Shown: positions 13,172 to 56,599 of the stretch, piece after piece
How positions within the stretch are numbered: position 1 is the stretch's first letter
Layout of the letters: every line of letters starts with the position of its first letter
From: Muscardinus avellanarius
Taxonomy: Eukaryota > Chordata > Mammalia > Rodentia > Gliridae
Assembly (NCBI GenBank): GCA_963383645.1
Contig: OY726559.1
Location: 110,320,235 to 110,384,234 of the forward strand
Reading direction: 5' to 3'
DNA length: 64,000 bases
The notes under the pieces: model-generated
Told to the model about the DNA's origin: nothing
Database searches by the model: none
The model's input: only the letters and a program-made list of their open reading frames with translations
Position numbers and translations under genes: made by a program

Positions 13172-13212
<41 letters not shown>

Positions 13213-16273: not shown

Positions 16274-16279
16274 AATAAA
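16274..16279 (+). terminator. NECTIN4: Proximal poly(A) signal candidate, NECTIN4
   Basis: AATAAA lies within CTGTAAATAAACTCG, about 600 bp after the stop codon. Confidence 0.4.
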
Positions 16280-16904: not shown

Positions 16905-17065
16905 TCCTGGCTGGGACGTGGGAGGTCAAGACAGGAGGGTCAGAGGTTAGAGGCCAGCACAGGGTTACTTAGTGAGCCTTTGCTCAAAATAAACAGGACT
17001 GGGGGTGTAGCTCAGTGACAGAATGTTCCTGGGTTTACGCTCCAGTGTTAAACACACACACATAC
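16905..17065 (+). mobile_element. Diverged SINE within the NECTIN4 3'UTR
   Basis: Remnants of the left half (GACAGGAGGGTCAGAGG, TTACTTAGTGAGCC) are followed by the right half (GGGGGTGTAGCTCAGTGAC and GGGTTTACGCTCCAG) and a CA-rich tail. Confidence 0.65.
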
Positions 17066-17147
17066 ATACACACAAGCAAAAGAAAAATCTGGGATGTACA
17101 TTTTGTATAAATATGTGCATATTTGTACATAAAATATACAGTTTTAA

Positions 17148-17153
17148 AATAAA
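17148..17153 (+). terminator. NECTIN4: Distal poly(A) signal candidate, NECTIN4
   Basis: AATAAA is preceded by an AT-rich block (TTTGTACATAAAATATACAG) and followed by a TGTTCTGTCTGG U/GU-rich element, the arrangement expected of a functional polyadenylation site. Confidence 0.65.
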
Positions 17154-17328
17154 CAGATAAAACCTGTTCTGTCTGGTTCCTGTCTTGCGCCTTGAATCAT
17201 AAGAGCCCTGAGCACCTTGGTCTCTGTATTGGTACCAAATAGACCTTCGACCATCTCTGAGAACCCCCAGCTAGCAAAGTAATGCTAAGAATCCCTTCTG
17301 GGATAACCAGTGTCTTGATTTGCAAAGT

Positions 17329-17368
<40 letters not shown>

Positions 17369-18080
17369 TCAGCCTCCCAAGTACTGGGATTATACACATG
17401 TGCCACTATGCCCAGCTCTACATCATGTTTTAAATCCTTTATAGGAGCCGGACGTGGTGCACACGCTTGTAATCCCCACGCTTGGGAGGCGGAGACAGGA
17501 GGATCGCGCAGGTTCGAAGCCAGCCTCACTGGCTCAAGAGACCCTGTTTCCAAATAAAAAAGTATAAAAATAAGTCTGAGAGTGAATCCCGGAGGTAGAA
17601 GGGTTTCCAGGAACCCCGGAACCACCAAAAAAAAAAAAAAAAGAATCAAAAGTAGGGCTGGAGGTAGAGTTCACAGGTAGAATGCCCCTCGGTTCCATCC
17701 CCAGTACCACAAAAAAATAACAATAATAATAATCCCCAGTAACACACATACCATACATCCTCCTGTCTCAGCCTCCCAAGTACTGGGATTATAAGTGTGC
17801 GTCACCATGCCCGGCTCACTCTATCCCTTTCTATGGGTAAATGGAAACTTCCGTTAAACACCTTCCATGGCCAGGCGTGGTGGCTCATGTTTGTAATCCC
17901 AGCATTTGGGAGGCTCACACAGGAGGATCAGTTCGAGGCCAGCCTCAGCTACTTAGTGAGCCCCTCTGCAACTCAGTGAGATCCTGTTTCAAAAGAAAGA
18001 ACAAGAAATAGGGTTGGGGCTGTAGCTCAGAGGTAGAATGGCCCTGGGTTCCATCCCTGGTATCTAAAAAAAAAAAAAAA
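17329..18080. mobile_element. SINE cluster between NECTIN4 and ARHGAP30
   Basis: A (TG)n array (17329-17366) is joined to an antisense left-half end (17367-17420). Then come a sense subfamily-b dimer (17440-17635), a sense ID monomer (17655-17720), an antisense left-half fragment (17755-17815) and a sense dimer (17870-18080). Confidence 0.75.
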
Positions 18081-18780
18081 AGGATACAATAGGCTGCTGG
18101 AGCTGGAAGGATTTTGGAAGGATTTATGGACCATCTAGTCTGCACCTTTATTTCCATGTGTGGAAACAGGCTCAGTGAAGTAGTGTAGGCCAACTGGGGC
18201 CACAGGCCCATCCACAGCACCCTGAGCCCCCGCACTTCTGGGCGAGCCTCGGGTCTCCAAGTCAGGCCTGAGAATTCTGGTCTCCAGGGGCGTTGGCCAC
18301 CTGCTCGAGCCCCAGGAACCATCACCCACCGGGGCGCTGACATCACGCCCCTGGACCAATGGGCGCTGTCCCAGCCAGGGGTGCGGATGTGAGTGGCAGC
18401 TACCTCCCCCACCGCAGGCGCTGTGGTTGAAAGATGCTCTAGCAGGAAGCAGGTTTGAGGAGCTGCGCAGCTTCCTGCCCCCCAGCCTCCCCAAGCTGCG
18501 CGGGACTGAAGGGCCAGGCCGAGGGCCCGGCTGGACCACGAGACGCAGCTTGTGCCAGGGTCCCAGCGGCTTCCTCTTCCACAGCCACTTCCGTGTGGCT
18601 GGGGCCCCGCGGGCAGGAGCTGCCACCCTCGCCAAGGCCACCCTCCCTCCACCCCAAGTTTGGGGCCCTACCCCCCGGGGCTGGGCCAAGCCCAGGGGCC
18701 GGCTGGGATCCCATGGGGGCCCGGTAGGGCGAGCGTCTTGGGGGACAGAGGTGGCCAGGCCAAGACTTGAGGCTCCTGCC
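18081..18780 (+). promoter_or_regulatory. ARHGAP30: ARHGAP30 promoter and 5'UTR region
   Basis: This SINE-free, GC-rich stretch lies directly upstream of the ARHGAP30 start codon and must hold its proximal promoter and 5'UTR if, as in other mammals, the first coding exon is at or near the 5' end. No TATA box or strong CpG island is visible, so the transcription start is not placed. Confidence 0.45.
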
Positions 18781-24168: not shown

Positions 24169-27100
24169 TTTTTGCGGGTCTGGGGATGGAACCCAGGGGC
24201 ATTTGACCTCCGAGCTATTCCCCCTGCCCTATTTTTTATTCTTTATTTTGAAACCAGGTCTCACTGAGTTGCAGAGGGCCTCACTAAGTAGCTGAGGCTG
24301 TCTGTAAACCGTGATCCTCCAGGTCTCAGCCTCCCGAATGCTGGGATTACAAGCGTGCGCCACCACGCCCGGCTTTATTTTATTTTATTTATTATTATTA
24401 CTATTATTTATTTATTTATTTTTGGTGGTACTGGGATTCCTGGAAGCCCTCTACCTCCGGGATACACTTCCACGGGCTACACTCCCAGACCTATTTTTTA
24501 ACATTTTTATGTGGAAACAGAGTCTCTTAAACCAGTGAGGCTGGCTCCGAACCAGCGGGATCCTCCTGTCTCCGCCTCCCAAGCGTGGGGATTACAAGCT
24601 TGCGCCACCACGCCCGGCTCTATTTTATTTTTTATTAAAAAAAATTTTTTTTGCGGTACTGGAGATGGAATCCAGGGGCATTCTACCTCCAAGTTATTTT
24701 TATTCTTTATTTGGAAACAAGATCTCACTGAGTTGCAGAGGGCCTCACTAAGTAGCTTAGGCTTTCTGGGAACCTGGATCCTTCTGTCTCAGCCTCCCGA
24801 ATGCTGGGATTACAAGCGTGCGCCACCACGCCCGGCCTATTTTTATTTTTATTTTGAAACAGGTTCTCAGGTTCTCACTAGGTTGATGAGAGTGTCACTA
24901 AATTGTTTTTTGTTTTGTTTTGCGATACTGGGGATAGAACCCAGGGACACTCTACCTCTGAGCTCCACCCCCAGCCCTATTTTCTATTCTTTATTTGGAA
25001 ACAGGGTCTCACTGAGTTGCAGAGGGCCTCACCAAGGAGCTGAGGCTGTCCTCCAACCGCGATCCTCCTGTCTAAGCCTCCCAATTGCAGGGATTCCCTG
25101 TCCTGGCTATAGCTGTCTTTTGTAGGCTCCAAACTGACTAGTGTCTACTAGGTCACGGTGCCCCAAAGAGCAGGGCGGGCGCAACGGAGGAGGGGGATCC
25201 GTGCTGGCTGCCCCCCCATGCTCCTGCGGGGTCACCGACTCCCCTCCTCCCCACTCAGGAGGCAGTGGCAGTGCAATTGGAGCCTGAGCGCTTGGTCAAG
25301 ATCCTAGAGGTGCTTCGAGAACTCCCTGCCCCAAACTACAGGTGCAAGGGGCCGAACCCCCACGCCCCAGGGCTCTTCCCTACCGGAGCCCCAGCCCTGC
25401 CCATCCCACGCTGCCCCGCCTCGCCCAAATCAGCCCCAGCCCCTGCCCCTGCCCCGCCCCAGTCCACTGCCCCGCCCCTGTCCCGTGCCCCGCCCAGGCC
25501 TATGCCCCGCCCCTGCCCCGTGCCCCGCCCAGATCTATGCTCCGCCCCTGTCCCATGCCCCGCCCAGGCCTATGCCCCGCCGCTGTCCCGTGCCCCGCCC
25601 ATATACATGCCCCGCCCCTGCCCCTGCACCACCGCGCCTGTGCCCCGCCCATGTCAGGTCCCTGCCCCGCTCATGCCCCGCCCCTGTTCCATACCCTGCC
25701 CCCTCGTTCCCCGCCCCACCCGTACCCATGCCCCGCCCATATCCATGCCCCGCCCCTGTCCCTGCTCCTCAGCGCCTTGCCCCACCCATGCCCCGCCCTC
25801 GCCCCGCCCTCGCCCCATCCAGGCCCCGCGTGACGCTGTCCCCTCTCTGCAGGACCCTGGAGTTCCTCATGCGACATCTGGTGCACATGGCCTCCTTCAG
25901 TGGACAGACCAACATGCACGCCCGCAACCTGGCCATCGTGTGGGCCCCCAACCTGCTGAGGTGGGCCGCGTGTGGGGCTCCCGGGACAGGTGTCGCTGGC
26001 TGGTGAGGGGTCTTATGAAACCCAGTGAGAAAGGGAAGATAGAATTTCGTGGGGTGGGATGGGGTGCCCTGGGGGAGGTCCTAAGAATGGCGGGGTGCGG
26101 TGGCACGAGCCTGTCATCCCAGGGACTTGAGAGGCTGAGGCAGGAGGGTCACAAGGCACTGGCCAGCCTGGGCAACTCAGTGAAACGCTGCCTCAAAATA
26201 AAATAAAATAAAATAAAATAAAATAAAATAAAATAAAATAAAGGCCAGACGTGGTGGGGCATGCTTGTAATCCCCATAGCTGGGAGGCTGAGACATGAGG
26301 ATCCAGGTTCTAGGACAGTCTCCTTAGCAAGACTCTGTTTCAAATATAAAGAATTAAAAAAAAAAAATCAGGCTGGGGGTGGAGCTCAGAGGTAGAAGGC
26401 CCCTGAGTTCAATACATGCCTGCAATCCCAGTACTTGGGAGGCTGAGACAGAAGGATCACAGGTTTGAGACCAGCCTCAGCAATTTAGCAAGACCCTGTT
26501 GTATTTTTTGGTTTTTGTCTTTTTTGGGGGGAGGAGGGATGGAACCCAGGGGCATTTGACCTCTGAGCTACACCCCATGCCCTATTTTTATTCTTTTTTT
26601 TTGTTGTTGTTGTTCTTAGCTTATTTTTTTTAAGGGTTTTTTGTTTTGTTTGTTTTGTTTGGGTTTTTTTTGTTTTGTTTTTGTCTTTTTTGGAACCAGG
26701 ATCGAACCCAGAGTGCCACACCTGCAAATCAGGTGCTTTGCCACTGAGCTACATCCCGGCCCTTTTATTCTTTAATTTGAAACGGGGATTCACTGAGTTG
26801 CAGAGGGCCTCACTAAGTGGCTGAGGCTTTCTATGAACCGCCATCCTCTGGTCTCAGCCTCCCGAATGCTGGGATTACAAGCGTAGCCACCACACCCGGC
26901 TAAGACCCTGTTTTTAAAATACCTAATAAAATCTGTCTGAGAGTGAGCTTGGAGATAGAAGTCTCCTGAGTTAAATCCCCAGAACAGCCGGGCGTGGTGG
27001 CGCACGCTTGTAATCCCCGCGCTTGGGAGGCAGAGACAGGAGGATCGCGCAGGTTCGAAGCCAGCCGCGCATGCTGGTTTAGGAGACCCTGTTTCCAAAT

Positions 27101-29810: not shown

Positions 29811-32800
29811 AAAAAACCTGGGCAGTAGCTTAGAGGAAGAACACCCCTGGTTTAATCTCCCTCAAATCCACAAACATTTAACGATGCCCGTTCTATACCG
29901 GTCAGGGGATAGATGCTAAATTTCAGCAGTGAGCTTGTGTAAGCCGTGGACATATCTTTGAGCATTTGCTCAGGGGGGTCCCGTGGTTCGTAGGCTGACT
30001 TCAGACCTGCCGTCCTCCTGCCTCAGCCTCCTGAGCTGGGGCCCAAGCGTCGGTGTCTGGTAGAGCAGATGGCCAGTGATGGGGAGGAAGGGGGCCCCGG
30101 GCAGGCGCGGGCGTCTCTGGCTTGGGGGCCGGGCGGAGGTGGAGTGGCCAAGGGAGGCTGGGCCTGGCACCTTCCAGGCCGTCCTTAGTAAGGGGCAGAG
30201 AGCGCTGTCCAGAAACCAGAGCATTGGCTTCTGAGCAGAGGCCGTGCTGACCGGCCCTCTCCTCCCCACAGAGCCGGAGGGGCTGGCGGGGCCCAGCAGT
30301 CACCAGCCACACCCGCTGCTGCCCGAGAGCCTGGAGGGTGATTCTCTGGAAGCCGCGGAGGGTGACCAGGAGCAGGAGGCAGAGGCGCTGGGGGACCCGA
30401 GCTCCGAGCCAGGAACCCCGCGAGCGGGGCGGTCTGCCGCCAGGGCCACGGGCAGCAGCCGAGCAGAGCGCTGCGTCGGCGTCCACATCTCAGGCCCCTA
30501 CAACGTCAACCTGCCTCTGCACATCACCTCGGTCCTCAGCGCACCTCCCAACATCATCTCCAACAAGTCCTTGGCCAGGCTCACCCGTGGCCTCGAGTGC
30601 CCGGCCCTGCAGCCCCGGTCTGGCCCTGCCTCAGGCCCCGGCCCCTCAGGTGAGGACGGCAGAGGGCCCGGGACTTCCCACTGAAGTCCTGACCCTGAGC
30701 ATCCACCCCGGGAAGGGCAGGGGCCTAAGACTCCTTGGGTTTGGGGGTGGATGCCTTCAGTTACAGCCTCGGGTTGGGAGTTGGTAAATCCAGTAATATT
30801 ATCACACTGAGTAACTGTCATGTTGGGGGTTGGAGAATCCAGCAGTATTGTCAGGAGAAGGGATTTCCAGAGCCTTTAAATCATCAACATACTCAGGATG
30901 AGAGTCTAAGTTAGATACCCACAGCAGGGCAATCACAGTGATATAAATACTAACAGCGAGCCGGGCGTGGTGGCGCACGCTTGTAATCCCAGCATTCGGG
31001 AGGCTGAGACAGGAGGATCCGGGTTCACCAACAGCCTCAGCTACTTAGTGAGGCTCTTTGCAACTCAGTGAGACCCTGTTTCAAAATAAATAGGCTGGGC
31101 ATGGTGGCGTACGCTTGTAATCCCAGTGCTTGGGAGGCTGAGACAGGAGGATTGCACAGGTTCGATGCCAGCCTCAGCTACTTAGTGAAGCTCTCAGCAA
31201 CTTAGTGAGACCCTGTTTTCAAATAAAAAAGTATAAAATAGGTCTGGGAGTATAGTCCAGAGGTATAAAGCCCCTGGGTTCTACCCCCAGTACCACCAAA
31301 AAATAAAAATAAATAATAAAAAAATAATAAATAATAAAAATAGGGGGTGTAGCTTGGAGGTGGAACACCCCTAGATTCCATCCCCAGTACTGTAAAAAAG
31401 AAAAAGAAAAAGAAAAGGTTATTTATCTGGAGGGATCAAGGCTAGGAAGACCCACATAGGAAAGGGTCAGAGCCAGGGCCAGCCTTGGCTTCATAACCCA
31501 GGGACTCCCTTTCCCCAGCAGATGAGAAGTCAGAGGCAAACCCAGCCTCAGGCCGCCTGGCTGCCCCGGGTGTGGCGCCCATGACTCCTACCCTGGAGGA
31601 CTGCCTGTCCCAGGAGGTGACGGACTCCTTCTCCTTCCTAGAGGACTCGAGCAGCTCCGAGCCCGAGTGGGTGGGGGCAGAGGACGTGGCAGGCGCAGCC
31701 TTTTCCCATGGGGAGGACGACCCTGGGCTGGGCTACCTGGAGGAGCTCCTGGGAACTGGGCCTCAGGTAAGGAGCAGCCAGGTGGGTTGAGGGATGAAGC
31801 GGAGTGGGAGGTGGACAGGGCATCTGGTCCTGAGCCCCAGAGGGAGGGTGGATAGGGTATCTGGTCCTGAGCCCCAAAGGGAGGGCGGACAGGGCTTCTG
31901 GTCCTGAGCCCCGGAGTGGGAGGGTGGACAGGGCGTCTGGTCCTGAGCCCCAGAGGGAGGGTGGACAGGGCGTCTGGTCCTGAGCCCCGGAGTGGGAGGG
32001 TGGACAGGGCGTCTGGTGCTGAGCCCTGGAATGGGAGGGTGGGCAGGGCGTCTGGCCCTGAGCCCCAGAGTGGGAGGGTGGGCAGGGCGTCTGGCCCTGA
32101 GCCTCAGAGTGGGAGGGTGGAAAGGGCGTCTGGTCCTGAGCCCCAGAGTATGTGTGTGTGTGGGGGTGGACAGGGCGTCTGGTCCTGAGCCCCAGAGTGG
32201 GAGGGTGGAAAGGGCATCTGGCCTGAGCCCCGGGCTCTGCAGCAGGTGCAGGAGTTCTCTGTGGAGCCGCCACTGGATGACCTGTCTCTGGACGAGGCGC
32301 AGTATGTCCTGGCTCCCAGCTGCTGTTCACTGGACTCCGCTGGTGCCAGGCCTGAGGTGGAGGAGGACAATGGGGAGGAGATCTTCCTGAGTGCATACGA
32401 TGACCTGAGTCCCCTTCTGAGCCCTAAATCCCCGGAGTGGGAGGATGTGGGGGATCTGGAGGTAGAGGACGCAGGGTGTGGGGGGCAGGACCCGGGCGAG
32501 GCTGAGGATGGGCAAGTGTGCCCGGAAGTTGGCGGAGACAAGGAGGCCGAGCCTGGGATCCAAATGGGCATCCGGGAAGAGGCCCAGGGGAGTCAAGAGA
32601 TGGGGCTGGAAGTTGGAAAGGCTGGTGAGGAAGACACCAGCTCAGAGGTGGTGGTCAGTGTGGAAGAAGGGGGTAGGGAGAAGGCAGAAGCCCAAGGTCA
32701 GAAGGAGGTTAAAAGAATAGAGGAAGAACCCAGAGGAGAGTGGGGAAAAGAGCAGAAGGAGAGAGAGGTCCGGAGAGTAGACGGGCAAGGAGGAGAGGAA

Positions 32801-33811
32801 GGCCCGGTAGAGGCTAACACGGCCCCCGAGAGCGAGGCCCAGGAACTCCTGGTGGCCGCGAGCCGGACGACTGGACAGCACGAGGCTGAGGTGGACAGAA
32901 GGGAGGAGGCCCCAGGGCCAAGCGAGGCTGGGGAGCACGCGGCAAGAGATGGCCAAGGACGTGGTGAAGACGGAAGCCCAGAAACAGCAGCTGATGGGCA
33001 AGATGTGGAGGTCCGCGGGGAGCGGCAGGGTGGAGCTGGAGAGGCCCAGGGAGCCCAGCAGGCCGGGGGCGACTGTGTAGAAGAGGCGGCACTCTTGGAA
33101 AGGCCAGGGGTAGAGTGTCTGGGGGCCGGCGGGGTCAAAGAGTGTGCTGCCCAGTCTTCTGAGATGGACCCGCAGGCTCCCCAGCCCGAGGAGGTGGAGC
33201 CCGAGGAAGCGCCCAGTGTAGCCAGCTGTGATCCGTGCCCCTTTATCTTAGCTGGTGGCGTGAGCATGCGCCTGGCTTCCACCCTGGTACAGGTCCAGCA
33301 GGTCCGCTCTGTGCCCGTAGTGCCTCCAAAACCCCAGTTTGCCAAGATGCCCGCCATGACATGTGGCAAGATCCACGTGGCCCCCGCGAGCCCGTGTCCG
33401 AGGCCTGGCCGGCTGGACGGGACTCCTGGGGAATGGGCTCGGGGCTCCCGAGCTTCCCGATCCTCTTGGAGGAATGGGGGCAGTCTCTCCTTTGACGCTG
33501 CTGTGGCCCTGGCTCGGGACCGACAGAGGACGGAGGCACAGGCAGTTCGGCGGTCCCAGACCTGTACTGGAGGCGGGGACTACAGCCTCAAGCCCAGAGC
33601 CTCCACCTGTACCACCAACCCCGACCCGTCTCCTCGGTCCCTTGGTTGCCTGGAAGTCCCATCTGAAGGCACAGAAGGGTCTGGACCCCAAAGGAGTCGG
33701 CTTAGTCTACCAGCTAGAGAGCCCCAAGCCCCTATTGCCCTTCTGTCCCCTCAGCGCCAGTCGTATGCATTTGAAACACGGGCACACCCTGGAGAAGGTG
33801 ACGGACTATAA
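18781..33811 (+). CDS. ARHGAP30: ARHGAP30, Rho GTPase-activating protein 30 (complete coding region)
   Basis: ARHGAP30 speeds GTP hydrolysis on Rho-family GTPases (RhoA and Rac1 in published work), reducing actin stress fibres and focal adhesions, and is enriched in blood cells. Twelve exons (18781-18877, 20556-20658, 23140-23284, 25259-25341, 25853-25960, 27627-27754, 28113-28284, 28836-28939, 29025-29102, 30272-30649, 31522-31766, 32246-33811) join in one frame to 1068 residues plus TGA; human has about 1101. The RhoGAP domain occupies about residues 20-215, with the arginine finger at Arg55 in DGIYRLSG. A basic KRKGSLKVRKWRSIFNLGRSG stretch follows, then Ser/Pro-rich sequence and a long Glu-rich region (about 580-900). 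The conserved tail includes VVPPKPQFAKMP, a proline-rich SH3-ligand-like motif. The start is the first ATG of the MKSRQKGKKK N-terminus, identical to human from memory. The size difference from human falls mainly in the Glu-rich region. Confidence 0.96.
18878..20555 (+). other. ARHGAP30: ARHGAP30 intron 1
   Basis: About 18878-20055 is unique, moderately GC-rich sequence with no recognisable exon. Antisense left-half SINE fragments follow at 20065-20175, 20180-20280 and 20282-20430. Confidence 0.7.
20556..20658 (+). CDS. ARHGAP30: ARHGAP30 exon 2 (arginine finger)
   Basis: The acceptor is GTCCTCAG and the donor GTGAGT. It encodes VPQVLRSCAEFVEEHGVVDG followed by IYRLSGVSSNIQKLR, with the catalytic arginine at residue 55. 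Confidence 0.95.
20659..23139. mobile_element. SINE-filled ARHGAP30 intron 2
   Basis: (CA)n arrays lie at 20800-20836, 21094-21140 and 22976-23015, and an (AAT)n array at 21385-21436. Sense SINEs occupy about 20909-21093 and 21180-21380 and a fragment 21440-21500; antisense copies occupy about 21560-21690, 21700-21910, 21950-22145, 22285-22490 and 22510-22635. A short antisense L1 3'-end piece with the ATTGGTGCACTG landmark is at 22660-22700. 22700-22975 is unique. Confidence 0.7.
23140..23284 (+). CDS. ARHGAP30: ARHGAP30 exon 3 (RhoGAP domain)
   Basis: The acceptor is CTCCCCAG and the donor GTGAGT. It encodes DVYLQDIHCVSSLCKAYFRE and LPDPLLTYRLYDKFA; the KxYFRELPxPL motif is diagnostic of RhoGAP domains. 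Confidence 0.96.
23285..25258. mobile_element. SINE-filled ARHGAP30 intron 3
   Basis: Sense SINEs (23390-23520, 23527-23725) run into a (CA)n array (23725-23761), a sense ID (23765-23830) and another (CA)n (23834-23872). After unique sequence (23873-24070), antisense copies follow at about 24075-24375 (containing (TTTA)n), 24425-24617 (subfamily b), 24650-24835, 24838-24905 and 24920-25100. Confidence 0.7.
25259..25341 (+). CDS. ARHGAP30: ARHGAP30 exon 4 (RhoGAP domain)
   Basis: The acceptor is CCACTCAG and the donor GTGCAA. It encodes EAVAVQLEPERLVKILEVLR and ELPAPNYR. Confidence 0.94.
25420..25835 (+). repeat. 35-bp CCCCGCCC minisatellite, ARHGAP30 intron 4
   Basis: Units of 35 bp built on GTGCCCCGCCCAGGCCTATG are spaced exactly at 25485, 25520, 25555 and 25590, and decay into shorter CATGCCCCGCCC units toward 25835. 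The array fills most of intron 4 and ends about 20 bp before the exon 5 acceptor. It is C-rich on the + strand with almost no thymine-rich tract apart from CCTCTCTGCAG. Confidence 0.85.
25853..25960 (+). CDS. ARHGAP30: ARHGAP30 exon 5 (RhoGAP domain)
   Basis: The acceptor is CTCTGCAG and the donor GTGGGC. It encodes TLEFLMRHLVHMASFSGQTN and MHARNLAIVWAPNLLR, the NLAxVxxPNLLR motif of RhoGAP domains. Confidence 0.95.
25961..27626. mobile_element. SINE-filled ARHGAP30 intron 5
   Basis: A sense left half (26087-26190) ends in an (AAATA)n array (26192-26240). Sense copies at 26242-26410 and 26411-26500 follow, then an antisense ID (26515-26595) and T/G-rich low complexity (26600-26690). An antisense ID with a full-length spacer (26690-26762) and an antisense left half (26763-26900) come next. 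A sense subfamily-b dimer (26985-27175), (CA)n (27216-27252) and a sense dimer (27319-27525) end the intron. Confidence 0.7.
27627..27754 (+). CDS. ARHGAP30: ARHGAP30 exon 6 (end of RhoGAP domain)
   Basis: The acceptor is CCGCTCAG and the donor GTCAGT. It encodes SKDIEASGFNGTAAFMEVRV and QSIVVEFILTHVDQLFGG. Confidence 0.94.
27755..28112 (+). other. ARHGAP30: ARHGAP30 intron 6, repeat-free
   Basis: I see only unique GC-rich sequence, without SINEs or other features. Confidence 0.7.
28113..28284 (+). CDS. ARHGAP30: ARHGAP30 exon 7
   Basis: The acceptor is CTTCCTAG and the donor GTAAGC. It encodes GEVDSGWRSFPGSRAS and GDGPPQIRPYHTIIEIAEHK. Confidence 0.93.
28285..28835 (-). mobile_element. Two antisense SINEs in ARHGAP30 intron 7
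   Basis: A (TTTC)n array and poly-T head (28310-28350) lead into an antisense subfamily-b dimer (28350-28520). A second antisense dimer follows (28550-28757). Confidence 0.75.
28836..28939 (+). CDS. ARHGAP30: ARHGAP30 exon 8 (basic region)
   Basis: The acceptor is TGCCTGCAG and the donor GTAAGC. It encodes RKGSLKVRKWRSIFNLGRSG and HETKRKLPRGAEDL, a strongly basic segment. Confidence 0.94.
29025..29102 (+). CDS. ARHGAP30: ARHGAP30 exon 9
   Basis: The acceptor is GTTTTGCAG and the donor GTGAGT. It encodes EEKSSKGALRPAKSMDSLTA and ATGVSD; RPAKSMDSL is a conserved serine-phosphorylation-like patch. Confidence 0.92.
29103..30271 (+). mobile_element. Sense SINE series in ARHGAP30 intron 9
   Basis: A left-half monomer (29193-29325) and a dimer (29328-29540) are followed by (GAAA)n (29563-29590). 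ID monomers at 29598-29655 and 29708-29765, an (AAAT)n array (29765-29810) and an ID fragment (29815-29860) come next. 29861-30271 is unique apart from a short antisense B1 scrap near 29985-30040. Confidence 0.7.
30272..30649 (+). CDS. ARHGAP30: ARHGAP30 exon 10
   Basis: The acceptor is TCCCCACAG and the donor GTGAGG. It encodes an acidic stretch, then RAERCVGVHISGPYNVNLPL, HITSVLSAPPNIISN and SLARLTRGLECPALQ. Confidence 0.94.
30650..31521 (+). mobile_element. Sense SINEs in ARHGAP30 intron 10
   Basis: After unique sequence (30650-30955), a left-half monomer (30960-31090), a subfamily-c dimer (31093-31300) and an ID monomer (31345-31395) follow in sense orientation. Confidence 0.75.
31522..31766 (+). 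CDS. ARHGAP30: ARHGAP30 exon 11
   Basis: The acceptor is CCCCAGCAG and the donor GTAAGG. It encodes LEDCLSQEVTDSFSFLEDSS and YLEELLGTGPQ. The phase of exon 10 selects the downstream AG of the CAGCAG pair. Confidence 0.93.
31798..32240 (+). repeat. 37-41 bp minisatellite filling ARHGAP30 intron 11
   Basis: About eleven copies of a unit containing GGGAGGGTGGACAGGGC and CTGGTCCTGAGCCCC repeat at a spacing of 37-41 bp (31824, 31861, 31899, 31937, 31974 and onward), with one copy interrupted by a (TG)n insertion near 32150. The array occupies nearly the whole 479-bp intron and runs into the exon 12 acceptor. The open frames across it are intronic. Confidence 0.88.
32246..33811 (+). CDS. ARHGAP30: ARHGAP30 exon 12 (long last coding exon)
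   Basis: A 521-codon open frame begins at the acceptor CTGCAGCAG and encodes EFSVEPPLDDLSLDEAQYVL, a long Glu/Gly-rich low-complexity region, then SVPVVPPKPQFAKMP, RASRSSWRNGGSLSFDAAVA and a C-terminus ending HPGEGDGL. The stop is TGA at 33809-33811. Choosing the upstream AG (exon start 32243) would add one glutamine. Confidence 0.95.
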   Translation: MQEFSVEPPLDDLSLDEAQYVLAPSCCSLDSAGARPEVEEDNGEEIFLSAYDDLSPLLSPKSPEWEDVGDLEVEDAGCGGQDPGEAEDGQVCPEVGGDKEAEPGIQMGIREEAQGSQEMGLEVGKAGEEDTSSEVVVSVEEGGREKAEAQGQKEVKRIEEEPRGEWGKEQKEREVRRVDGQGGEEGPVEANTAPESEAQELLVAASRTTGQHEAEVDRREEAPGPSEAGEHAARDGQGRGEDGSPETAADGQDVEVRGERQGGAGEAQGAQQAGGDCVEEAALLERPGVECLGAGGVKECAAQSSEMDPQAPQPEEVEPEEAPSVASCDPCPFILAGGVSMRLASTLVQVQQVRSVPVVPPKPQFAKMPAMTCGKIHVAPASPCPRPGRLDGTPGEWARGSRASRSSWRNGGSLSFDAAVALARDRQRTEAQAVRRSQTCTGGGDYSLKPRASTCTTNPDPSPRSLGCLEVPSEGTEGSGPQRSRLSLPAREPQAPIALLSPQRQSYAFETRAHPGEGDGL

Positions 33812-35114: not shown

Positions 35115-35499
35115 GTGAATGGAACTGGAGGACATTATGCTAAGTGAGATTAGTCAGTCACAAAAAATAAGAAATCAGTTGCTTTCCCTAATATGTGAGA
35201 GTTAGGGAGAAATGGGTCATAGGAGGAACTCTAGATGAAAAAGGAAATCCTATGGAGGAGCAAACAAGACAACCTAAAGGAGGAGAAAGGAGGAGGGAAG
35301 AGGAAAATCTCTAAAACACACAATGTACTTAAACATATCAAAGTCAACCACTAAGCCGAGCAAGGGAGGGAGGGACAGGGAGGGAATGGGGTGGGAATTG
35401 GGTAGGGGCTAAATCAGTGATGTGTACATGTCTCTACACACGTTTTTTACCTCAATATGATGTATGAATATAATGCACCAATAAAAATTAAAAAAAAAA
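35115..35499 (+). mobile_element. 5'-truncated L1 3' end with target-site duplication
   Basis: A 385-bp LINE-1 3' terminus in sense orientation (GAATGGAACTGGAGGACATT at the left, AATGCACCAATAAAAATT plus an A tail at the right). It is flanked by a perfect 14-bp duplication, GAAAATACAAGTGC, at 35101-35114 and 35500-35513. It carries no open reading frame. Confidence 0.9.
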
Positions 35500-35570
35500 G
35501 AAAATACAAGTGCAGTTATGACAAAGCAACAAGGAGAAAGCTTTTCCAAACAGTCCAAGACATGAGTGGA

Positions 35571-39325: not shown

Positions 39326-41486
39326 GTGAGTCAAGGGAAGGTAGGGGGCGGGGGGCAGGTGCTGGCTTTGGCGCTCGGGCTGACCTGGACTCCGTCCCAG
39401 CTGAGGGATGCGGCTTCCCTGTCTACAGAACAGAAGTGGTGCCGTCTGGGTCTCAGCGCTGCCCTTAGTACTGAAGAAGGCAGTGCTGCTGAGTGCTTGG
39501 CGGCTCTGCACCTAGGCACACCTGTCGTTGCGTCTCCCGGACCCAGCGGGCGTGGGGGCCGCCCTGCGTTACTGGGCCAGCGACTTCACCCTTCCTTTTG
39601 TCTTTTTACCACCGACAGGCAGCAGAAAACAGCTGAAGCAGAAGAGGGGACAGTTCAGATTCAGGAAGGTGAGAGCCAAGCAGGAGCAGGAGCAGGGACC
39701 CGTCCTGTCCCCCTCCCCATCTTCCCCGCACCCCCTTCTTTTTTTCTTTTCTTTTTTATTTTGCAGTACTGGGGATGGAACCCAGGGGCATTAGACCTCC
39801 AAGCTACACCCCCGGCCCTGTTTTTTATTCTTTATTCTGAAACAGGGTCTCACTGAGTTGCAGAGGGCCTCACTAAGTAGCTGAGGCTGTCCCCAAACCG
39901 TGATCCTCCTGTCTCAGCCTCCCGAATGCTGGGATTACAAGCCTGCACCAGCACGCCTGGCTAACACCCCCTTCCTCTGTAAAGGCCATCTCGGTGGGGT
40001 GGGGCGGGTGGGGCCAGCTGGCGCAGACCCCCGTGGCCTCTTACCGCAGGTGCAGTGGCTACTGGGGAGGACCCCACCAGCGTGGCTATTGCCAGCATCC
40101 AGTCTGCCGCCACCTTCCCCGACCCCAATGTCAAGTACGTCTTCCGAACTGAGAATGGGGGCCAGGTAAGGGGGGCCAGGTGCCTGCAGCTTCCTGGGGT
40201 GGGGCTGAGGGCGTGCTCACAGCGGGGAGGATGCGGTGACAGTGTGGACTCCCCAGGTGGGGGCGCGGCTTTGGAGCAGAGATGGCTGGGTGGGCGGCTG
40301 AAACCTCAGCGTGGGAAGGAAGGGCAGCCGAGTCCCTGGCTATCTGAGGGAGGCTCCAGTGCGCACACCTTTCTGCCCCGCCCTCCCTGTGTGCTTCCAG
40401 GTGATGTACAGGGTGATCCAGGTGTCCGAGGGGCAGCTGGATGGCCAGACCGAGGGCACTGGCGCCATCAGCGGCTACCCTGCCACCCAGTCCATGACCC
40501 AGGTACGGGGGAGGGGCCGACGGCAGGGGAGGCCCCAGAGGCCGGGAGGCTGAGGCACTGGGTGCTCACGGGCTCTCCCGCTCCCTCCCCAGGCCGTGAT
40601 CCAGGGTGCCTTCACCAGCGAGGATGCAGTGGATGCCGAGGGGACGGCTGCTGAGACACATTATACTTACTTTCCCAGCACCGCCGTGGGAGAGGGGGCT
40701 GGGGGCACCACATCGGGGAGCACGGCTGCCGTCGTTACCACCCAGGGCTCAGAGGCGCTGCTGGGGCAGGCCACCCCTCCCGGCACTGGTGAGACCATGC
40801 GAGAGGCAGGGGCTCTGGGCTTCCCGCCCCCCTGGTGACGGCTGGGAGCCTGGGTGCGCGGCCGTCCCGGCTGCTCAAAGGGTGTCCCCTGCTCTTCGCA
40901 GGTCAGTTCTTTGTGATGATGTCGCCCCAGGAAGTGTTACAGGGTGGGGGCCAGCGCTCCATCGCCCCCAGGACCCACCCCTACTCCCCGTGAGTGAGCT
41001 CCGTGTCTTCTTGGGTCCTACCGGTGGCCTTGGCTTCTGCTACCCTGTGCCTAAGCCCCCACCCCGAATTCCAGTCTCAGTGCTGGCCCTTCCTCATGCT
41101 GGCCACCCTGGGCTCTGTTCTCAGGAAGTCGGAAGCCCCCCGGACCACCCGGGATGAGAAGCGCAGGGCTCAGCACAATGAAGGTAAGGAGGGGTTGTGA
41201 GCCCTGGGGGGCTGCCCCTTTCTCTGGGCCGCGGGGGCTCTGACCCTGACCCCGCTTCCACCCACAGTGGAGCGTCGCCGCCGAGATAAGATCAACAACT
41301 GGATCGTGCAGCTGTCCAAGATCATCCCGGACTGCTCCATGGAGAGTACCAAGTCAGGCCAGGTTAGGGATGGCCCCGTGCTGCTTCCAGAAGTGGAGGG
41401 TGCGGGGCGCTGCTCTGGCCACCTGCGTACCCAGGGCTCATGCTCTGTCCCCATTCGTAGGGGGCAATGAGGTTCAGAGTGAGATG

Positions 41487-50956: not shown

Positions 50957-51213
50957 TGTGGGTCTGGGGATAGAACCCAGGGACATTTGACTCCTGAACT
51001 ACACCCCCTGCCCTGTTCTTTGTTCTTTATTTTGAAACAGGGTCTCACTAAGTTGCAGAGGGCCTCACTAAGTAGCTGAGGCTGTCCACGAACCGTGATC
51101 CTCCTGTCTCAGCCTCCCAAATGCTGGGATTACAAGTTTATGCTGAATGTGTACAAACTATCAGTGGGTATATGGCCTTCCTCTGTGGGATGAAAAGTTG
51201 TCCTAAATAACTC

Positions 51214-51262
<49 letters not shown>

Positions 51263-51312
51263 GGGAATGGAACCCAGGGGCACTCTACCTCCGAGCTACA
51301 CCCCCAGCCCCT
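50210..51312. mobile_element. SINE and compound (TC)n(CA)n cluster
   Basis: A sense SINE scrap (50215-50312) carries a compound (TC)n(CA)n array (50313-50399) next to a sense ID (50405-50465). Diverged sense copies occupy 50530-50680 and 50715-50860. An antisense dimer lies at 50940-51140, and (TG)n (51214-51258) abuts an antisense ID right half (51259-51312). Confidence 0.65.
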
Positions 51313-51476
51313 ATTTTTTTCTTCTTTCTTTCTTTTCTTCTTTCTATTTATTTATTTTTACGGTACTGGGGATGGAACCCAGGGACATTCTACCTCCAAG
51401 CTACACCCACAGCCCTATTTTTTTATTCTTTATTTTGAAACAAGGTCTCACTGAGTTACAAAGAGCCTCACCAAGT

Positions 51477-51493
51477 TGCAGAGGCTGGTTTTA
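51477..51493. repeat. Target-site duplication, left copy
   Basis: TGCAGAGGCTGGTTTTA occurs here and again at 55224-55240. The match is perfect over 17 bp and ends at mismatches on both sides. Confidence 0.92.
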
Positions 51494-51524
51494 TTTTTTT
51501 ATTTTTTATTTTTTTTAACTTCTT

Positions 51525-51757
51525 TATTTTTTTTATTGGTGCAATGTATTCATACATCATAATGGTATAAAGAAAATACTTTTGTAGACATACATGCACA
51601 CATCGCCCAGTTAGCCCCTACCCGATCCCCACCCCGTTCCCTCCCCATTCCTCCTTCCCATGCTTGACTTAGTGGTTGACATCTAGTTTTATAGCAATTT
51701 ATCCAATATTAAAGATGATAATCTCACATAACAGTTTCATTTGTCTGATACCAAGCT
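51525..51757 (-). mobile_element. L1 3'-end segment A (terminal)
   Basis: The complement carries GATGTATGAATACATTGCAC followed by CAATAAAA, matching the L1 3' end at 35115-35499, and a purine-rich GGGAGGGAACGGGGTGGGG stretch typical of L1 3'UTRs. Confidence 0.85.
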
Positions 51758-52138
51758 TTTTTTTTTTAATTAATTTATTTTTTAAATTGGTGCATTATAG
51801 TCATATATCAATCACATTGGAGTACAAGACTTGAGAGGATATACAAGCACACATCATCCAATTAGCCCTCCTCCAGCCCCCGTCCCATTCCCTCCCCCTC
51901 CCTCCATCCCACACTTCTTTGGTGATTTACTTTGATACATTTGTTTATGTACCTCCTGCATTTTAAAGAGGCTCCGTCCTCCAGTATTACATACCCTCTG
52001 ATTGGTCACATTAGTTGCTTCACTATAGGGCCCTTTCTATAGCTCAACCTCTTCCTGTTGCCCTTTTCCTCCTAGTTATTGCTGATTAAGAGAAGCGTCT
52101 GATTTATATTTTCTGCGATATTTCTCTGTGCATGCTGC
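51758..52138 (-). mobile_element. L1 3'-end segment B (internal)
   Basis: A diverged relative of segment A with its own TGCACCAATTTAAAAAATAA end and A-rich tract, so two L1-type 3' termini stand in series. Upstream of its purine-rich part it extends about 200 bp further than segment A. Confidence 0.8.
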
Positions 52139-52185
52139 GTTGCAAGTACCAATCCCACTCTTGATGGTCCCAGTAGTGGCCTGGC

Positions 52186-55100
52186 TACTCAGTGGACTGA
52201 TCCAGACCTCGCTGGCTCACGCAGCGGCCTTGCCTCATGGGAGGACCCAGTTCTGGTCTCGCTGGCCCCTGAACCGGTCAAACCCCTAAGCTGGCTTTGG
52301 TCCCGACCTTGGAGGCCGCAGGAGTGAACTTGCCTCACGCCAGGCTCCGATGCTGGCCATTGGCCCCTGCACCGGTCTAACCCCTTGGCAGGATTCCAAT
52401 CCCGGCCTCGGAGGCCCCAACACTGGTAATGCCTCAAGGCAGGCTCCGATGCCGGCCTTGCTGGCCCCAGCACCGGCCTAACCCCTCGGCAGGCTCTTAT
52501 CCTGGCCTCGGAGGCCCCAGTACCAGCCTTGCCTCACGGCAGGCTCCGATGCCGGCCTCGCTGGCCCCAGCACCGGCCTAACCCCTCGGCAGGCTCCGAT
52601 CCCGGCCTCGGAGGCCCCAGCACTGGTCATGCCTCACGGCAGGCTCCGCTGCAAGCCTCGTTGGCCCCAGCACCGGCCTAACCTCTCGGCAAGCTCTTAT
52701 CCTGGCCTCGGAGGCCCCAGTACCGGCCTTGCCTCACGGTAGGCTCCGATGCCGGCCTCGCTGGCCCCAGCACCGGCCTAACCCCTCGGCACGCTCTTAT
52801 CCTGACCTCGAGGCCCCAGTACCGGCCTTGCCTCAAGGCAGGCTCCGATGCCGGCCTCGCTGGCCCCAGCACCGGCCTAACCCCTCAGCAGGCTCTTATC
52901 CTGGCCTCGGAGGCCCCAGTACCGGCCTTGCCTCACGGCAGGCTCCGATGCCGGCCTCACTGGCCCCAGCAGTGGCCTAACACCTCGGCAGGCTCTGATC
53001 CCGGCCTCAGAGGCCCCAGTACCGGCCTTGCCTCAAGGCAGGCTCCGATGCCGGCCTCGCTGGCCCCAGCACCGGCCTAACCCCTCGGCAGGCTCTTGTC
53101 CTGGCCTCGGAGGCCCCAGTACCGGCCTTGCCTCACGGCAGGCTCCGATGCCGGCCTCGCTGGCCCCAGCACCGGCCTAACCCCTCGGCAGGCTCTGATC
53201 CCGGCCTCGGAGGCCCCAGCACTGGTCATGCCTCAAGGCAGGCTCCGATGCCGGCCTCGCTGGCCCCAGCACCGGCCTAACCCCTTGGCAGGCTCTTATC
53301 CTGGCCTCGGAGGCCCCAGTACTGGCCTTGCCTCACGGCAGGCTCCGATGCCGGCCTCGCTGGCCCCAGCACCGGCCTAACCCCTCGGCATGCTCCGATC
53401 CCGGCCTCGGAGGCCCCAGCACTGGTCATGCCTCACGGCAGGCTCCACTGCCGGCCTTGTTGGCCCCAGCACCGGCCTAACCCCTCGGCAAGCTCTTATC
53501 CTGGCCTCGGAGGCCCCAGTACCGGCCTTGCCTCATGGCAGGCTCCGATGCCGGCCTCGCTGGCCCCAGCACCGGCCTAACCCCTCGGCAGGCTCTTATT
53601 CTGGCCTAGAGGCCCCAGTACCGGCCTTGCCTCAAGGCAGGCTCCGATGCCGGCCTCACTGGCCCCAGCACTGGCCTAACCCCTCGGCAGGCTCTTATCC
53701 TGGCCTCGGAGGCCCCAGTACCGGCCTTGCCTCACGGCAGGCTCCGATGCCGGCCTCGCTGGCCCCAGCACCGGCCTAACCCCTCGGCAGGCTCCGATCC
53801 CGGCCTCGGAGGCCCCAGCACTGGTCATGCCTCAAGGCAGGCTCTGATGCCGGCCTCGCTGGCCCCAGCACCGGCCTAGCCCCTTGGCAGGCTCTTATCC
53901 TGGCCTCGGAGGCCCCAGTACCGGCCTTGCCTCACGGCAGGCTCCGATGCCGGCCTCGCTGGCCCCAGCACCAGCCTAACCCCTCGTCATGCTCCGATCC
54001 CGGCCTCGGAGGCCCCAGCACTGGTCATGCCTCACGTTTGGCTCCGCTGCCGGCCTCGTTGGCCCCAGCACCGGCCTAACCCCTCGGCAAGCTCTTATCC
54101 TGGCCTCGGAGGCCCCAGTACCGGCCTTGCCTCACGGCAGGCTCCGATGCCGGCCTCGCTGGCCCCAGCACCGGCCTAACCCCTCGGCAGGCTCTTATCC
54201 TGGCCTCGAGGCCCCAGTACCGGCCTTGCCTCAAGGCAGGCTCCGATGCCGGCCTCGCTGGCCCCAGCACCGGCCTAACCCCTCGGCAGGCTCTTATCCT
54301 GGCCTCGAGGCCCCAGTACCGGCCTTGCCTCAAGGCAGGCTCTGATGCCGGCCTCGCTGGCCCCAGCACCGGCCTAACCCCTCGGCACGCTCTTATCCTG
54401 GCCTCGAGGCCCCAGTACCGGCCTTGCCTCAAGGCAGGCTCCGATGCCGGCCTCGCTGGCCCCAGCACCGGCCTAACCCCTCAGCAGGCTCTTATCCTGG
54501 CCTCGGAGGCCCCAGTACCGGCCTTGCCTCACGGCAGGCTCCGATGCTGGCCTCACTGGCCCCAGCAGCGGCCTAACCCCTCGGCAGGCTCCGATCCCGG
54601 CCTCAGAGGCCCCAGCACTGGTCATGCCTCACGGCAGGCTCCGATGCCGGCCTCGTTGGCCCCAGCACCGGCCTAACCCCTCGGCAGGCTCTTATCCTGG
54701 CCTCGGAGACCCCAGTACCGGCCTTGCCTCACGGCAGGCTCCGATGCCGGCCTCGCTGGCCCCAGCGCCTGCCTAACCCCTCGGCAGGCTCTTATCCTGG
54801 CCTAGAGGCCCCAGTACCGGCCTTGCCTCAAGGCAGGCTCCGATGCCGGCCTCACTGGCCCCAGCACTGGCCTAACCCCTCGGCAGGCTCTTATCCTGGC
54901 CTCGGAGGCCCCAGTACCGGCCTTGCCTCACGGCAGGCTCCGATGCCGGCCTCGCTGGCCCCAGCAGCGGCCTAACCCCTCGGCAGGCTCCGATCCCGGC
55001 CTCGGAGGCCCCAGCACTGGTCATGCCTCAAGGCAGGCTCCGATGCCGGCCTCGCTGGCCCCAGCACCGGCCTAGCCCCTTGGCAGGCTCTTATCCTGGC

Positions 55101-55223
55101 CTCGGAGGCCCCAGTACCGGCCTTGCCTCGCGGCAGGCTCCGATGCCGGCCTCGCTGGCCCCAGCACCGGCCGAACCCCTCGGCATGCTCCAATCCCGGC
55201 CTCGGAGGCCCCAGCACTGGTCA
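52186..55223 (-). repeat. VNTR of 100-bp units made of two related 50-bp halves
   Basis: About 30 units follow with a 100-bp period and occasional 1-bp deletions. On the + strand one half carries TAACCCCTCGGCAGGCTC and GGCCTCGGAGGCCCCAG, the other TTGCCTCACGGCAGGCTCCG and GGCCTCGCTGGCCCCAG, so the unit is itself a diverged 50-bp duplication. CpGs are largely preserved, which suggests a young or homogenised array. The first 250 bases (52186-52440) are more diverged. Marker variants recur about 600 bp apart. Confidence 0.92.
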
Positions 55224-55240
55224 TGCAGAGGCTGGTTTTA
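55224..55240. repeat. Target-site duplication, right copy
   Basis: TGCAGAGGCTGGTTTTA, identical to 51477-51493, lies directly against the last truncated VNTR unit. Confidence 0.92.
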
Positions 55241-55312
55241 AACTGGCGACCCTCCTGTCTCAGCCATGGAGTACTGGAACTCCCAGGTGTGGTCCACCAT
55301 GCCCAGCACCTG

Positions 55313-56599
55313 AAGTTTCTCTTGTCACAGACCCAAGTACCCAGTCCCTCCCTAAGCACCTCTCTCCTTGGCTCTTCAATCTGATACTTTGTGTATAACT
55401 CCCTCCCCAAGACTTAAATTCCTTTGAGAGTAAAGGACATAACTGCATTTGGCAGGCACCCAAATGTTTGTTTCAATACACCGATATCAGGTTTCTTTTG
55501 TGTTACAGATTGTCTTGCTTTCTGCACTAGTCTTGGAAGTAAATTGTAAACCATTAAGCTGGAAATTGTGATGATGTGCATTCTCTTAAGGCACCCAGCA
55601 GTTGCTTGTGTGATGGTGCCTACTGGTAATCTCAGTACTTGGGAGGCTGAGACAGGAGGATCACAGGTTCCAGGTCAGCCTCAGCAACTTACTGAGGAAG
55701 CCTGTTTCAAAACAAAAAATGAAAAGGGCTGGGGGTGTAGCTTGTTGATAGAACACCTGTGGGTTCAATTCCCAGTAAGGCCCCCACCCCACACCAATAA
55801 GCATCACCAAAGGCTTGTGGCCCACCCCAGCAACTTGTGAGGCCCTCGGCAACTTAGTGAGGCCCTGTTTCAAAATAAGGAATAAAATGGGGCTGGGGGT
55901 GTAGCTCGGAGGTAGAATGCCCCTGGGTTCCATCCCCAGTACTGCAAATAAATAAATAAATTAATTAATTAAATGAAATAAAAGGGAGGACTTTAGTCAC
56001 AGCGAGCAGACAAATAGTTCTGGAACTTAAAGCTTTGCCAACAGATCAAAAATATGTCAAGGACCTCTCCGCGGTTACGCAGAAAAGTTGGGAGACAGGC
56101 GAGGCGGGTTTCTGTTCTCTGGGTGCGCTGAGCGCCCGCTGTCTAAAGTTCTCCCTGAGATAATGTTGTTTTCCCACGGCGGACTTCAGCCCTCGCTTCT
56201 CTTTTCTTTCGTGTTTTCCTTTTTCGGTTCTGGGGACTGAATCTAGGTCCGCCTCTCCTGCCCTCTTTGTTTTGGAACCAGGGTCTCAGTAAACCTCGAC
56301 CCCGCGGCGCCAAGCCCCCGCAGTCCTTCTTCCTCTTCTCCGACAGCTCACCTCGCAAAGCTACTAGTGGGGTGAACAGACGAACCCGATTTGGGGGCGG
56401 TGTCAAGGCATCTTCCCATTTCGCTTTCAGCCTCCCCCTCCCACCCCATAAAGATGGAAGCTGGGCGCAGTCTACCTCTGAACTACACCCCCAGCCCTCG
56501 TGCATTTTTAAAAAAAAATTGTAATCAGGGCCTTCAACCTGCGATCCTCCAGTCTCAGCCTCCCAAGTAATTACAGAGGTGCTTCAGCGCGCCGCATAT
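55313..56599. other. Intergenic sequence upstream of F11R
   Basis: Unique sequence (55313-55600) is followed by sense SINEs at 55605-55785 and 55795-55950 and an A/T tail. 55985-56455 is unique with rising GC, and a broken antisense SINE occupies 56457-56580. Confidence 0.6.

What the first reader, a model, noticed from the sequence alone, without database searches (positions are those of the whole stretch)
51494..55223. SVA-like composite retroposon: VNTR plus L1 3' end in a rodent
A 3.7 kb block carries a GC-rich VNTR at its 5' side (- strand), L1-derived 3' sequence, and an A-rich tail, and is flanked by a perfect 17-bp target-site duplication inside a SINE that becomes intact when the insertion is removed. 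The layout parallels hominoid SVA and gibbon LAVA elements, but the VNTR unit and 3' module are different. I know of no named VNTR composite retroposon of this kind in squirrel-like rodents. If it is a family, it would be an independent evolution of the VNTR-retroposon design.
Basis: partly seen in the sequence, partly recalled or inferred. Interest (0 to 1): 0.88.

Follow-up and report, generated by a model that had tools for sequence, protein, structure and literature searches.

The report
SVA-like VNTR retroposon family, rodent
This is one copy of a young, abundant jumping-DNA family, built like the ape SVA elements but from different parts, in what looks like a squirrel genome; it suggests that the same unusual design arose a second time in evolution.

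Summary

The family prediction is confirmed. All 40 scored places match the window's VNTR-L1 junction at 98-100% (window included). A junction pattern occurs 6,626 times, and a pattern specific to the family's upstream linker 3,278 times; both reversed controls give 0. Of 20 copies read with flanks, 18 have a TSD of 12 bp or more, against 0 of 380 mismatched pairs. Target sites look like L1 endonuclease sites.

Fuller copies show what the window copy lacks: 5' array of ~125-bp GC-rich monomers, ~490-bp unique linker, 50/100-bp VNTR, ~390-bp L1-derived 3' end, poly(A). The window copy is truncated inside the VNTR and carries an extra old L1 3' end, probably a 3' transduction.

The parts of SVA that I tested for (hexamer, SRP/Alu-like domain) were not found. 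This is a non-autonomous VNTR composite, apparently mobilised by L1 and evolved independently of SVA/LAVA. No tool names the species; other species were not testable.

The parts
51477..51493 (.). target-site duplication, copy at the element's 3' side
   Evidence: 17/17 identical to 55224-55240
51494..51518 (-). terminal A-rich tail (reads T-rich on +)
   Evidence: sequence
51519..51756 (-). segment B: spacer plus an old L1 3' end, absent from the shared core; probable 3' transduction
   Evidence: 79% over 164 columns to the L1 3' end at 35343-35500; 86-91% to L1 copies lying outside the element beside L010, L012, L028; 15 of 20 fetched copies reach their TSD within about 90 bp after segment A
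51757..51770 (-). internal A-tract closing the core element
   Evidence: sequence; position where the core ends in the fetched copies
51771..52145 (-). segment A: L1-derived 3' module shared by the family
   Evidence: 98.5-99.7% in 20 of 20 fetched copies; L1 homology
52124..52150 (-). 27-base VNTR-L1 junction pattern used for the genome count (position read from the sequence)
   Evidence: 6,626 genome matches at up to 2 mismatches, control 0; found exactly once in each of 27 of the 49 held loci
52146..55223 (-). GC-rich VNTR, 50-bp half-units in a 100-bp unit, 5'-truncated in this copy; its edge towards segment A is not sharp
   Evidence: half-unit strings compared with 20 other copies
55224..55240 (.). 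target-site duplication, copy at the element's 5' side
51312..51493 (.). host SINE and its flank, left part
   Evidence: joined flanks align through the junction to other SINE copies
55241..55306 (.). host SINE, right part

Best explanation
The block is a 5'-truncated copy of a young, high-copy, non-autonomous VNTR composite retroposon. The fullest copies read 5' - array of ~125-bp GC-rich monomers - ~490-bp unique linker - VNTR of 50/100-bp GC-rich units - ~390-bp 3' end of an L1 - poly(A). Shown: shared structure, dispersal, TSDs, L1-type target sites, A-rich tails. Inferred: an RNA is transcribed from within the 5' monomer array, is polyadenylated in the L1-derived 3' end (or read through into flanking DNA, giving 3' transductions), and is inserted by L1 proteins acting in trans through target-primed reverse transcription, often with 5' truncation. 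The VNTR is remodelled at the DNA level between rounds. In the window copy reverse transcription stopped inside the VNTR, and the RNA had run through into an old L1 3' end next to its source.
For: 40 of 40 scored places match the junction and VNTR edge at 98-100%, window included. Junction pattern 6,626, linker pattern 3,278, both reversed controls 0. Not selected by score: of 24 exact linker matches on the first 77.9 Mb of contig C1 (the stretch covered by both lists), 19 have an exact junction on the same strand 1.3-7.2 kb downstream (coordinates compared by eye). All 20 copies fetched with flanks have segment A at 98.5-99.7%. 15 of 20 have the same linker/VNTR boundary and the 125-bp monomers; the other 5 are truncated inside the VNTR like the window copy. 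TSDs: 18 of 20 at 12 bp or more, 0 of 380 mismatched pairs, null maximum 11. Target sites: T at -2 and -1 in 16 of 20 each; first four TSD bases A in 12, 19, 17 and 19 of 20. Linker probe: 40 of 40 scored places at about 100%; 20 of the 40 were fetched, and all 20 have monomers upstream and VNTR downstream. VNTR half-unit strings: 17 of 21 copies end in the same two units, 9 of 15 full copies begin with the same unit, interiors are shuffled.
Against: No transcription or mobility data exist here. The L1 that mobilises it was not identified: the reverse-transcriptase family search did not complete. Part of the junction pattern lies in the L1-derived module, so may include L1 copies without a VNTR; the linker count is the firmer one. 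5 of the 24 linker places on C1 have no exact junction listed nearby, and 4 of 21 VNTR strings end differently. In the strict scan the TSDs of L015 and L024 are only 9 and 5 bp (15 and 14 bp by the looser scan), and L022's 14-bp match is partly shared with a SINE start. The clustering of 5' starts that suggests promoters in the monomers is modest (10 coincident pairs against 2.8 expected, p 0.002, three starts corrected by hand); the Rayleigh test is not significant (p 0.11). Copies read in full are best-scoring hits and so biased towards young ones.
Confidence: 0.93

Rival explanations
1. A short L1 insertion at this locus next to which a minisatellite later expanded; no family exists.
For: Higher-order duplication in the array shows expansion at the DNA level.
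Against: The same junction is found at 39 other scored places at 98-99% with independent TSDs in the copies read and variable VNTR lengths of 1.4-6.0 kb.
Confidence: 0.01
2. The family is an internally deleted L1: the monomers and linker are an L1 5' UTR, and the VNTR replaced the ORFs.
For: The 3' end is L1-derived; a monomer array at the 5' end recalls mouse L1 5' UTRs (recalled, not from a call).
Against: An L1 5' UTR beside an intact ORF1 (L049), about 0.8 kb and without tandem repeats by TRF, has no significant match to monomers, linker or VNTR (best linker match 14 bp, E 0.015). Related 5' UTRs lie in L010 (89%) and L012 (90% and 76% in two pieces). Only these three copies were seen.
Confidence: 0.12
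3. The family descends from hominoid-type SVA/LAVA by common ancestry or transfer rather than by convergence.
For: Same overall order: 5' tandem repeat, unique domain, GC-rich VNTR, 3' module, poly(A).
Against: No (CCCTCT)2 or (AGAGGG)2 in 7 of 7 elements tested; no Rfam match of any kind at E 0.1 inside the one element scanned, L023, whose SRP matches lie in its flanks; the 3' module is L1, not SINE-R. The VNTR unit was not aligned to SVA units here.
Confidence: 0.02
4. Copies spread as segmental or satellite-like DNA duplications rather than by retrotransposition.
For: Tandem arrays, and one pair with nearly the same VNTR string (L016 and L023).
Against: L016 and L023 have different TSDs; TSDs, A-rich tails, 5' truncation and L1-type target sites in the sample.
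Confidence: 0.02

Closest known systems
SVA (SINE-R-VNTR-Alu), hominoid primates
   Same: Non-autonomous, L1-type insertion, 5' tandem repeat, middle domain, central GC-rich VNTR with recurring repeat order at the ends, 3' module, poly(A); 3' transductions (known for SVA from PMC9311842, start of abstract)
   Different: 5' CT-hexamer and Alu-like region not found here; 5' repeat is a 125-bp monomer; VNTR period 50/100 bp (SVA 30-50 bp repeats); 3' module is L1-derived, not HERV-K; 3,278 linker and 6,626 junction matches against roughly 2,700 SVA copies per human genome (PMC4982230 passage)
LAVA / PVA / FVA (gibbon)
   Same: VNTR composites with substituted 3' ends; LAVA's 3' part includes an L1ME fragment (PMC4432496 Background); conserved repeat units only at VNTR ends (section read)
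   Different: All share the primate hexamer/Alu-like 5' region with SVA; here that region was not found and the 5' array and linker are different. The VNTR units and the L1 pieces were not aligned to those of LAVA
L1 with monomeric 5' UTR (mouse; recalled)
   Same: Tandem GC-rich 5' monomers; copies start inside the array
   Different: No ORF1 or ORF2 found; the L1 5' UTR examined in this genome lacks monomers, and two further copies are of the same type

Membership tests
VNTR composite retrotransposons (SVA, LAVA, PVA, FVA) | Central GC-rich VNTR as part of the mobile unit | tested here: met
   VNTR 1.4-6.0 kb in 20 of 20 copies; GC 0.70 in the window copy and L014
VNTR composite retrotransposons (SVA, LAVA, PVA, FVA) | Shared 5' CT-hexamer / Alu-like region | tested here: not met
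   No hexamer pairs in 7 of 7 elements; no SRP/Alu-like Rfam match at E 0.1 inside the one element scanned, L023
VNTR composite retrotransposons (SVA, LAVA, PVA, FVA) | Hallmarks of L1-mediated insertion (TSD, poly(A), TT/AAAA) | tested here: met
VNTR composite retrotransposons (SVA, LAVA, PVA, FVA) | Mobilised by L1 in trans | not testable with these tools
   Needs a cell assay; an open L1 ORF1 exists in the genome (L028)
VNTR composite retrotransposons (SVA, LAVA, PVA, FVA) | Conserved repeat-unit order at VNTR 5' and 3' ends | tested here: met
   Half-unit strings of 21 copies: 17 end in RS, 12 of them in TWRS; 9 of 15 full copies begin with the same unit
VNTR composite retrotransposons (SVA, LAVA, PVA, FVA) | Restricted to hominoid primates | tested here: inconclusive
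   No tool named the organism; the rodent reading rests on recalled SINE types
L1 (LINE-1) | Encodes ORF1 and ORF2 | tested here: not met
L1 (LINE-1) | L1 3' end | tested here: met
   Segment A against an L1 3' end, score 192 against shuffle maximum 51
SINE | Short, Pol III promoter | not tested
   Length 1.8-7.7 kb argues against; Pol III boxes not searched

The most novel reading that the evidence does not exclude
A VNTR composite retroposon evolved a second time, outside apes, with its own promoter: a 5' array of 125-bp monomers, each able to start transcription (as proposed for mouse L1, recalled), drives a VNTR RNA that borrows an L1 3' end. It has amplified to thousands of copies, is still moving, and outnumbers human SVA. 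VNTRs would then be a recurrent functional solution for parasitising L1, not an accident of ape history.
Probability: 0.6. Interest if true: 0.92.

Novelty: new variant of a known kind. Interest (0 to 1): 0.87.

Why it matters
VNTR composites are described as specific to hominoid primates (PMC4432496, abstract and Background). An apparently unrelated family with the same architecture is a natural replicate. Features kept in both (GC-rich VNTR with recurring edge units, a 5' tandem array, a middle domain, an adopted 3' end) are candidates for what the L1 machinery needs, while features that differ (Alu-like domain, hexamer, SINE-R) are candidates for dispensable parts. Genome annotation may also miscount it as L1 plus simple repeat (inference). 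It bears on the report of LINE and/or SINE quiescence in a ground squirrel (cited in PMC5857283, passage seen), if the host is a squirrel.

Tried and rejected
Rejected: post-insertion array expansion; L1 5' UTR as origin of the 5' domain (three L1 copies only); SVA/LAVA descent; segmental duplication (see rivals).

Led nowhere: the 22-base VNTR pattern in viral contigs and genome contigs gave 0 matches each; a read-through of the linker frame found no Pfam family above cut-off (best PF22938, E 0.1) and no PDB sequence at E 1, so the linker's origin is unknown; the Rfam scan of 51000-56000 gave only a sub-threshold SCARNA7 match outside the insert; the VNTR against the rest of the window gave no match at E 0.01. 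Passages of PMC12424770 and PMC12400938 held nothing on the question.

Papers: searches for a VNTR composite outside primates were made, in a mostly open-access library. Searches found 0 papers; in the others only 5 to 20 papers were listed, out of totals from 5 to 18,109, and among the listed titles and abstract beginnings none describes one. One search looked for squirrel retroelement extinction.

Never answered: PF00078 in the own genome (autonomous L1), segment B in the own genome, the L1 ORF1 protein in the own genome.
Full report
OBSERVATION. The window holds a 3,730-bp insert at 51494-55223 between two perfect copies of a 17-bp target-site duplication, 51477-51493 and 55224-55240. Read on the - strand it begins inside a GC-rich tandem array and ends in an A-rich tail. 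Joining the flanks gives a stretch that aligns through the junction to SINE copies elsewhere in the window. The array has a 100-bp period, 30 copies, 89% matches; each unit is two alternating half-units of about 50 bp that are about 75% alike, while half-units 12 or 24 steps apart (600 and 1,200 bp) are about 94-95% alike on average. The array is 70% GC.

THE 3' PART. Two L1 3'-end segments lie downstream of the VNTR. Segment A (51757-52145) aligns to the L1 3' end at 35.1-35.5 kb with score 192 against a maximum of 51 in 200 dinucleotide-preserving shuffles; segment B (51519-51756) scores 176 against 56. A and B are separated by an A-tract and about 80 bp that do not align to the window's L1.

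FAMILY TEST. The genome in which the window lies is 2.497 Gb in 104 contigs. A 601-bp probe across the junction gave 1,264 first-look candidates; the 40 that were scored, the window copy among them, match at 98-100%. A 27-base pattern at the VNTR-L1 junction matches 3,332 + 3,294 = 6,626 times at up to two mismatches, reversed control 0. Its 3' half lies in the L1-derived module, so some of these could be L1 copies without a VNTR; this was not tested. A 27-base pattern at the 3' end of the linker, which is not L1 sequence as far as tested, matches 1,676 + 1,602 = 3,278 times, control 0. Both lists print only their first 100 places, all exact matches; on the stretch of C1 that both cover (to 77.9 Mb) there are 24 exact linker places, and 19 of them have an exact junction on the same strand 1.3-7.2 kb downstream. 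The other 5 have none in the exact list (a mismatch, a different 3' end or a rearrangement). If every junction match is a composite, about half reach the linker.

ANATOMY. All 20 copies carry segment A at 98.5-99.7%, and their VNTRs run from 1.4 to 6.0 kb. Fifteen of 20 continue upstream into a shared ~490-bp linker and a tandem array of ~125-bp monomers (71% GC in L014), about 1 to 10 of them; five (L010, L013, L018, L025, L027) stop inside the VNTR, like the window copy. A linker probe gave 1,763 candidates, 40 scored at about 100%; 20 of these 40 places were fetched, and all 20 have monomers upstream and VNTR downstream; 4 of the 20 are copies already in L009-L028. Core lengths in the 20 copies are 1.8-7.7 kb, mean about 4.9 kb (my arithmetic). 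If that held for all 6,626 junction matches, the family would fill about 32 Mb, 1.3% of the genome: a rough upper guess from a biased sample.

INSERTION MECHANISM. Eighteen of 20 copies have a TSD of at least 12 bp. Of 380 mismatched 5'/3' pairs none reaches 12 (maximum 11; 3 reach 10). The other two, L015 and L024, score 9 and 5 in that scan but show 15- and 14-bp duplications in the looser scan, which has no control. One of the 18, L022, is weaker than its length suggests because part of its 14-bp match is shared with a SINE. At the inferred nick, T is found at -2 and -1 in 16 of 20 each, and the first four bases of the TSD are A in 12, 19, 17 and 19 of 20. This resembles the L1 endonuclease pattern TT/AAAA (consensus recalled); the exact edge is ambiguous where A's of the tail meet A's of the site. 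Tails are A-rich and of variable length. The window target reads AGTTTAAAACC on the element strand.

3' TRANSDUCTION. In 15 of 20 copies the TSD follows within about 90 bp of segment A (13; L015 and L024). In the other five it lies further on: about 720 bp in L014 (no match to the L1 ends compared), 340 bp in L017 (a second L1 3' end, 87% to the window's L1), 325 bp in L018 and 210 bp in L027 (a shared second L1 3' end, about 90% like segment A and 98.6% alike between the two), and 210 bp in L022. The window's segment B is 86-91% like L1 copies that lie outside the element beside L010, L012 and L028. I read it as an old L1 end transduced from the flank of a source copy. The direct test, a genome search with segment B, did not complete.

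AGE. Mean distance to the majority base is 0.2% in segment A (21 copies) and 0.5% in the linker (15 copies). These are best-scoring hits, so they show that young copies exist, not the mean age. L016 and L023 share nearly the whole VNTR unit string but have different TSDs.

VNTR ORDER. Naming half-units that recur at least four times and writing each of 21 copies as a string gives a recurring 3' edge (17 of 21 end in the units RS, 12 of these in TWRS) and a recurring 5' edge in one set of full copies (9 of 15 begin with unit e); the other 6 full copies begin differently. Interiors are shuffled and partly duplicated (rarer variants appear as dots, and the splitter merged some units). For LAVA, conservation only at the ends was reported (PMC4432496, section read), and remodelling at the DNA level was inferred there for SVA and LAVA (section read).

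POSSIBLE PROMOTER. In 27 distinct copies whose 5' end could be placed on the monomer, start positions coincide more than expected: 10 exact pairs against 2.8, p 0.002 (after correcting by hand three starts that the alignment had trimmed or shifted; before correction 13 pairs, p 0.0001). The 27 are what remained of 34 copies in which the linker string was found: 3 arrays ran off the locus and 4 were duplicates; L011 was missed by the string. A Rayleigh test is not significant (p 0.11), as can happen when starts form several clusters. I take this as a hint of transcription starts inside the monomers, no more.

AUTONOMY AND ORIGIN. No ATG-started sense ORF of 120 aa or more was listed for five elements; the list for L014 was capped at its four longest, all antisense (up to 258 aa). 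The window VNTR has stop-free stretches of up to 134 codons in sense and 198 in antisense. An L1 with an open 306-aa ORF1 (Transposase_22, E 6.5e-26) lies beside L028. Its 5' UTR (L049) is about 0.8 kb, not tandem, and unlike the monomers, linker and VNTR (best linker match 14 bp, E 0.015); related 5' UTRs lie in L010 (89%) and L012 (90% and 76% in two pieces). The 5' domain is therefore not the promoter of the L1s sampled; three copies is a small sample. The linker has no Pfam match above cut-off and no PDB match. Inside the L023 element Rfam finds nothing at E 0.1 (all its matches lie in the flanks), and 7 of 7 elements tested have no CCCTCT pairs.

COMPARISON. SVA, LAVA, PVA and FVA share a 5' CT-hexamer/Alu-like region and a central VNTR, differ in their 3' ends, and are stated to be specific to hominoid primates (PMC4432496, abstract and Background). 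The present family has the same order of parts but not the SVA 5' region. It works like a VNTR composite. It is not a member of the SVA/LAVA lineage by the 5'-region criterion. Nine searches of a mostly open-access library listed no VNTR composite outside primates; the lists were capped, and most subscription papers, preprints and repeat databases were not searched.

LIMITS. No second species could be searched. Copies read in full were chosen by score. The mobilising L1 and the source of segment B remain untested because those searches did not complete.

Noticed in passing
window 6385-7683 (+): Open frame holding a nectin-4 V-type Ig exon (PDB 4jjh and 4gjt matches, E about 1e-59). Frames near 32189-33808 and 39983-40651 look like ARHGAP30 and USF1 by recall only (no Pfam hit), so the insert may lie beyond USF1 in a conserved gene block.
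   Followed up: partly
L028 and L049 (C24:10049498-10062280): An L1 with an open ORF1 (306 aa) and a ~0.8-kb non-tandem 5' UTR beside a composite copy with about 6 monomers.
   Followed up: partly
L018 and L027, after position 8945 in element sense: Both carry the same second L1 3' end (98.6% alike, about 90% like segment A) inside their TSDs: a possible sublineage with a doubled 3' module.
   Followed up: partly
L014, element-sense 8945-9667: About 720 bp between the core and the TSD without a match to the L1 ends compared: a candidate 3' transduction that could identify its source copy.
   Followed up: no
G000:C1 near 23065243, 23900358, 31548619, 60872079, 72317064: Exact linker matches with no exact junction listed within 10 kb on the same strand: mismatched junctions, or copies with another 3' end.
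   Followed up: no
window 31800-32233 and 25433-25805: Two other GC-rich tandem arrays (39-bp and 17/35/70-bp periods); the VNTR has no match at E 0.01 elsewhere in the window.
   Followed up: partly
G000 contig lengths: The contig lengths seen fall from C3 (167.7 Mb) to C17 (64.8 Mb); C23 (over 123 Mb by a hit) and C24 (10.2 Mb) break the order, as X and Y might, which would mean 22 autosomes. Inference only; it could help name the species.
   Followed up: no
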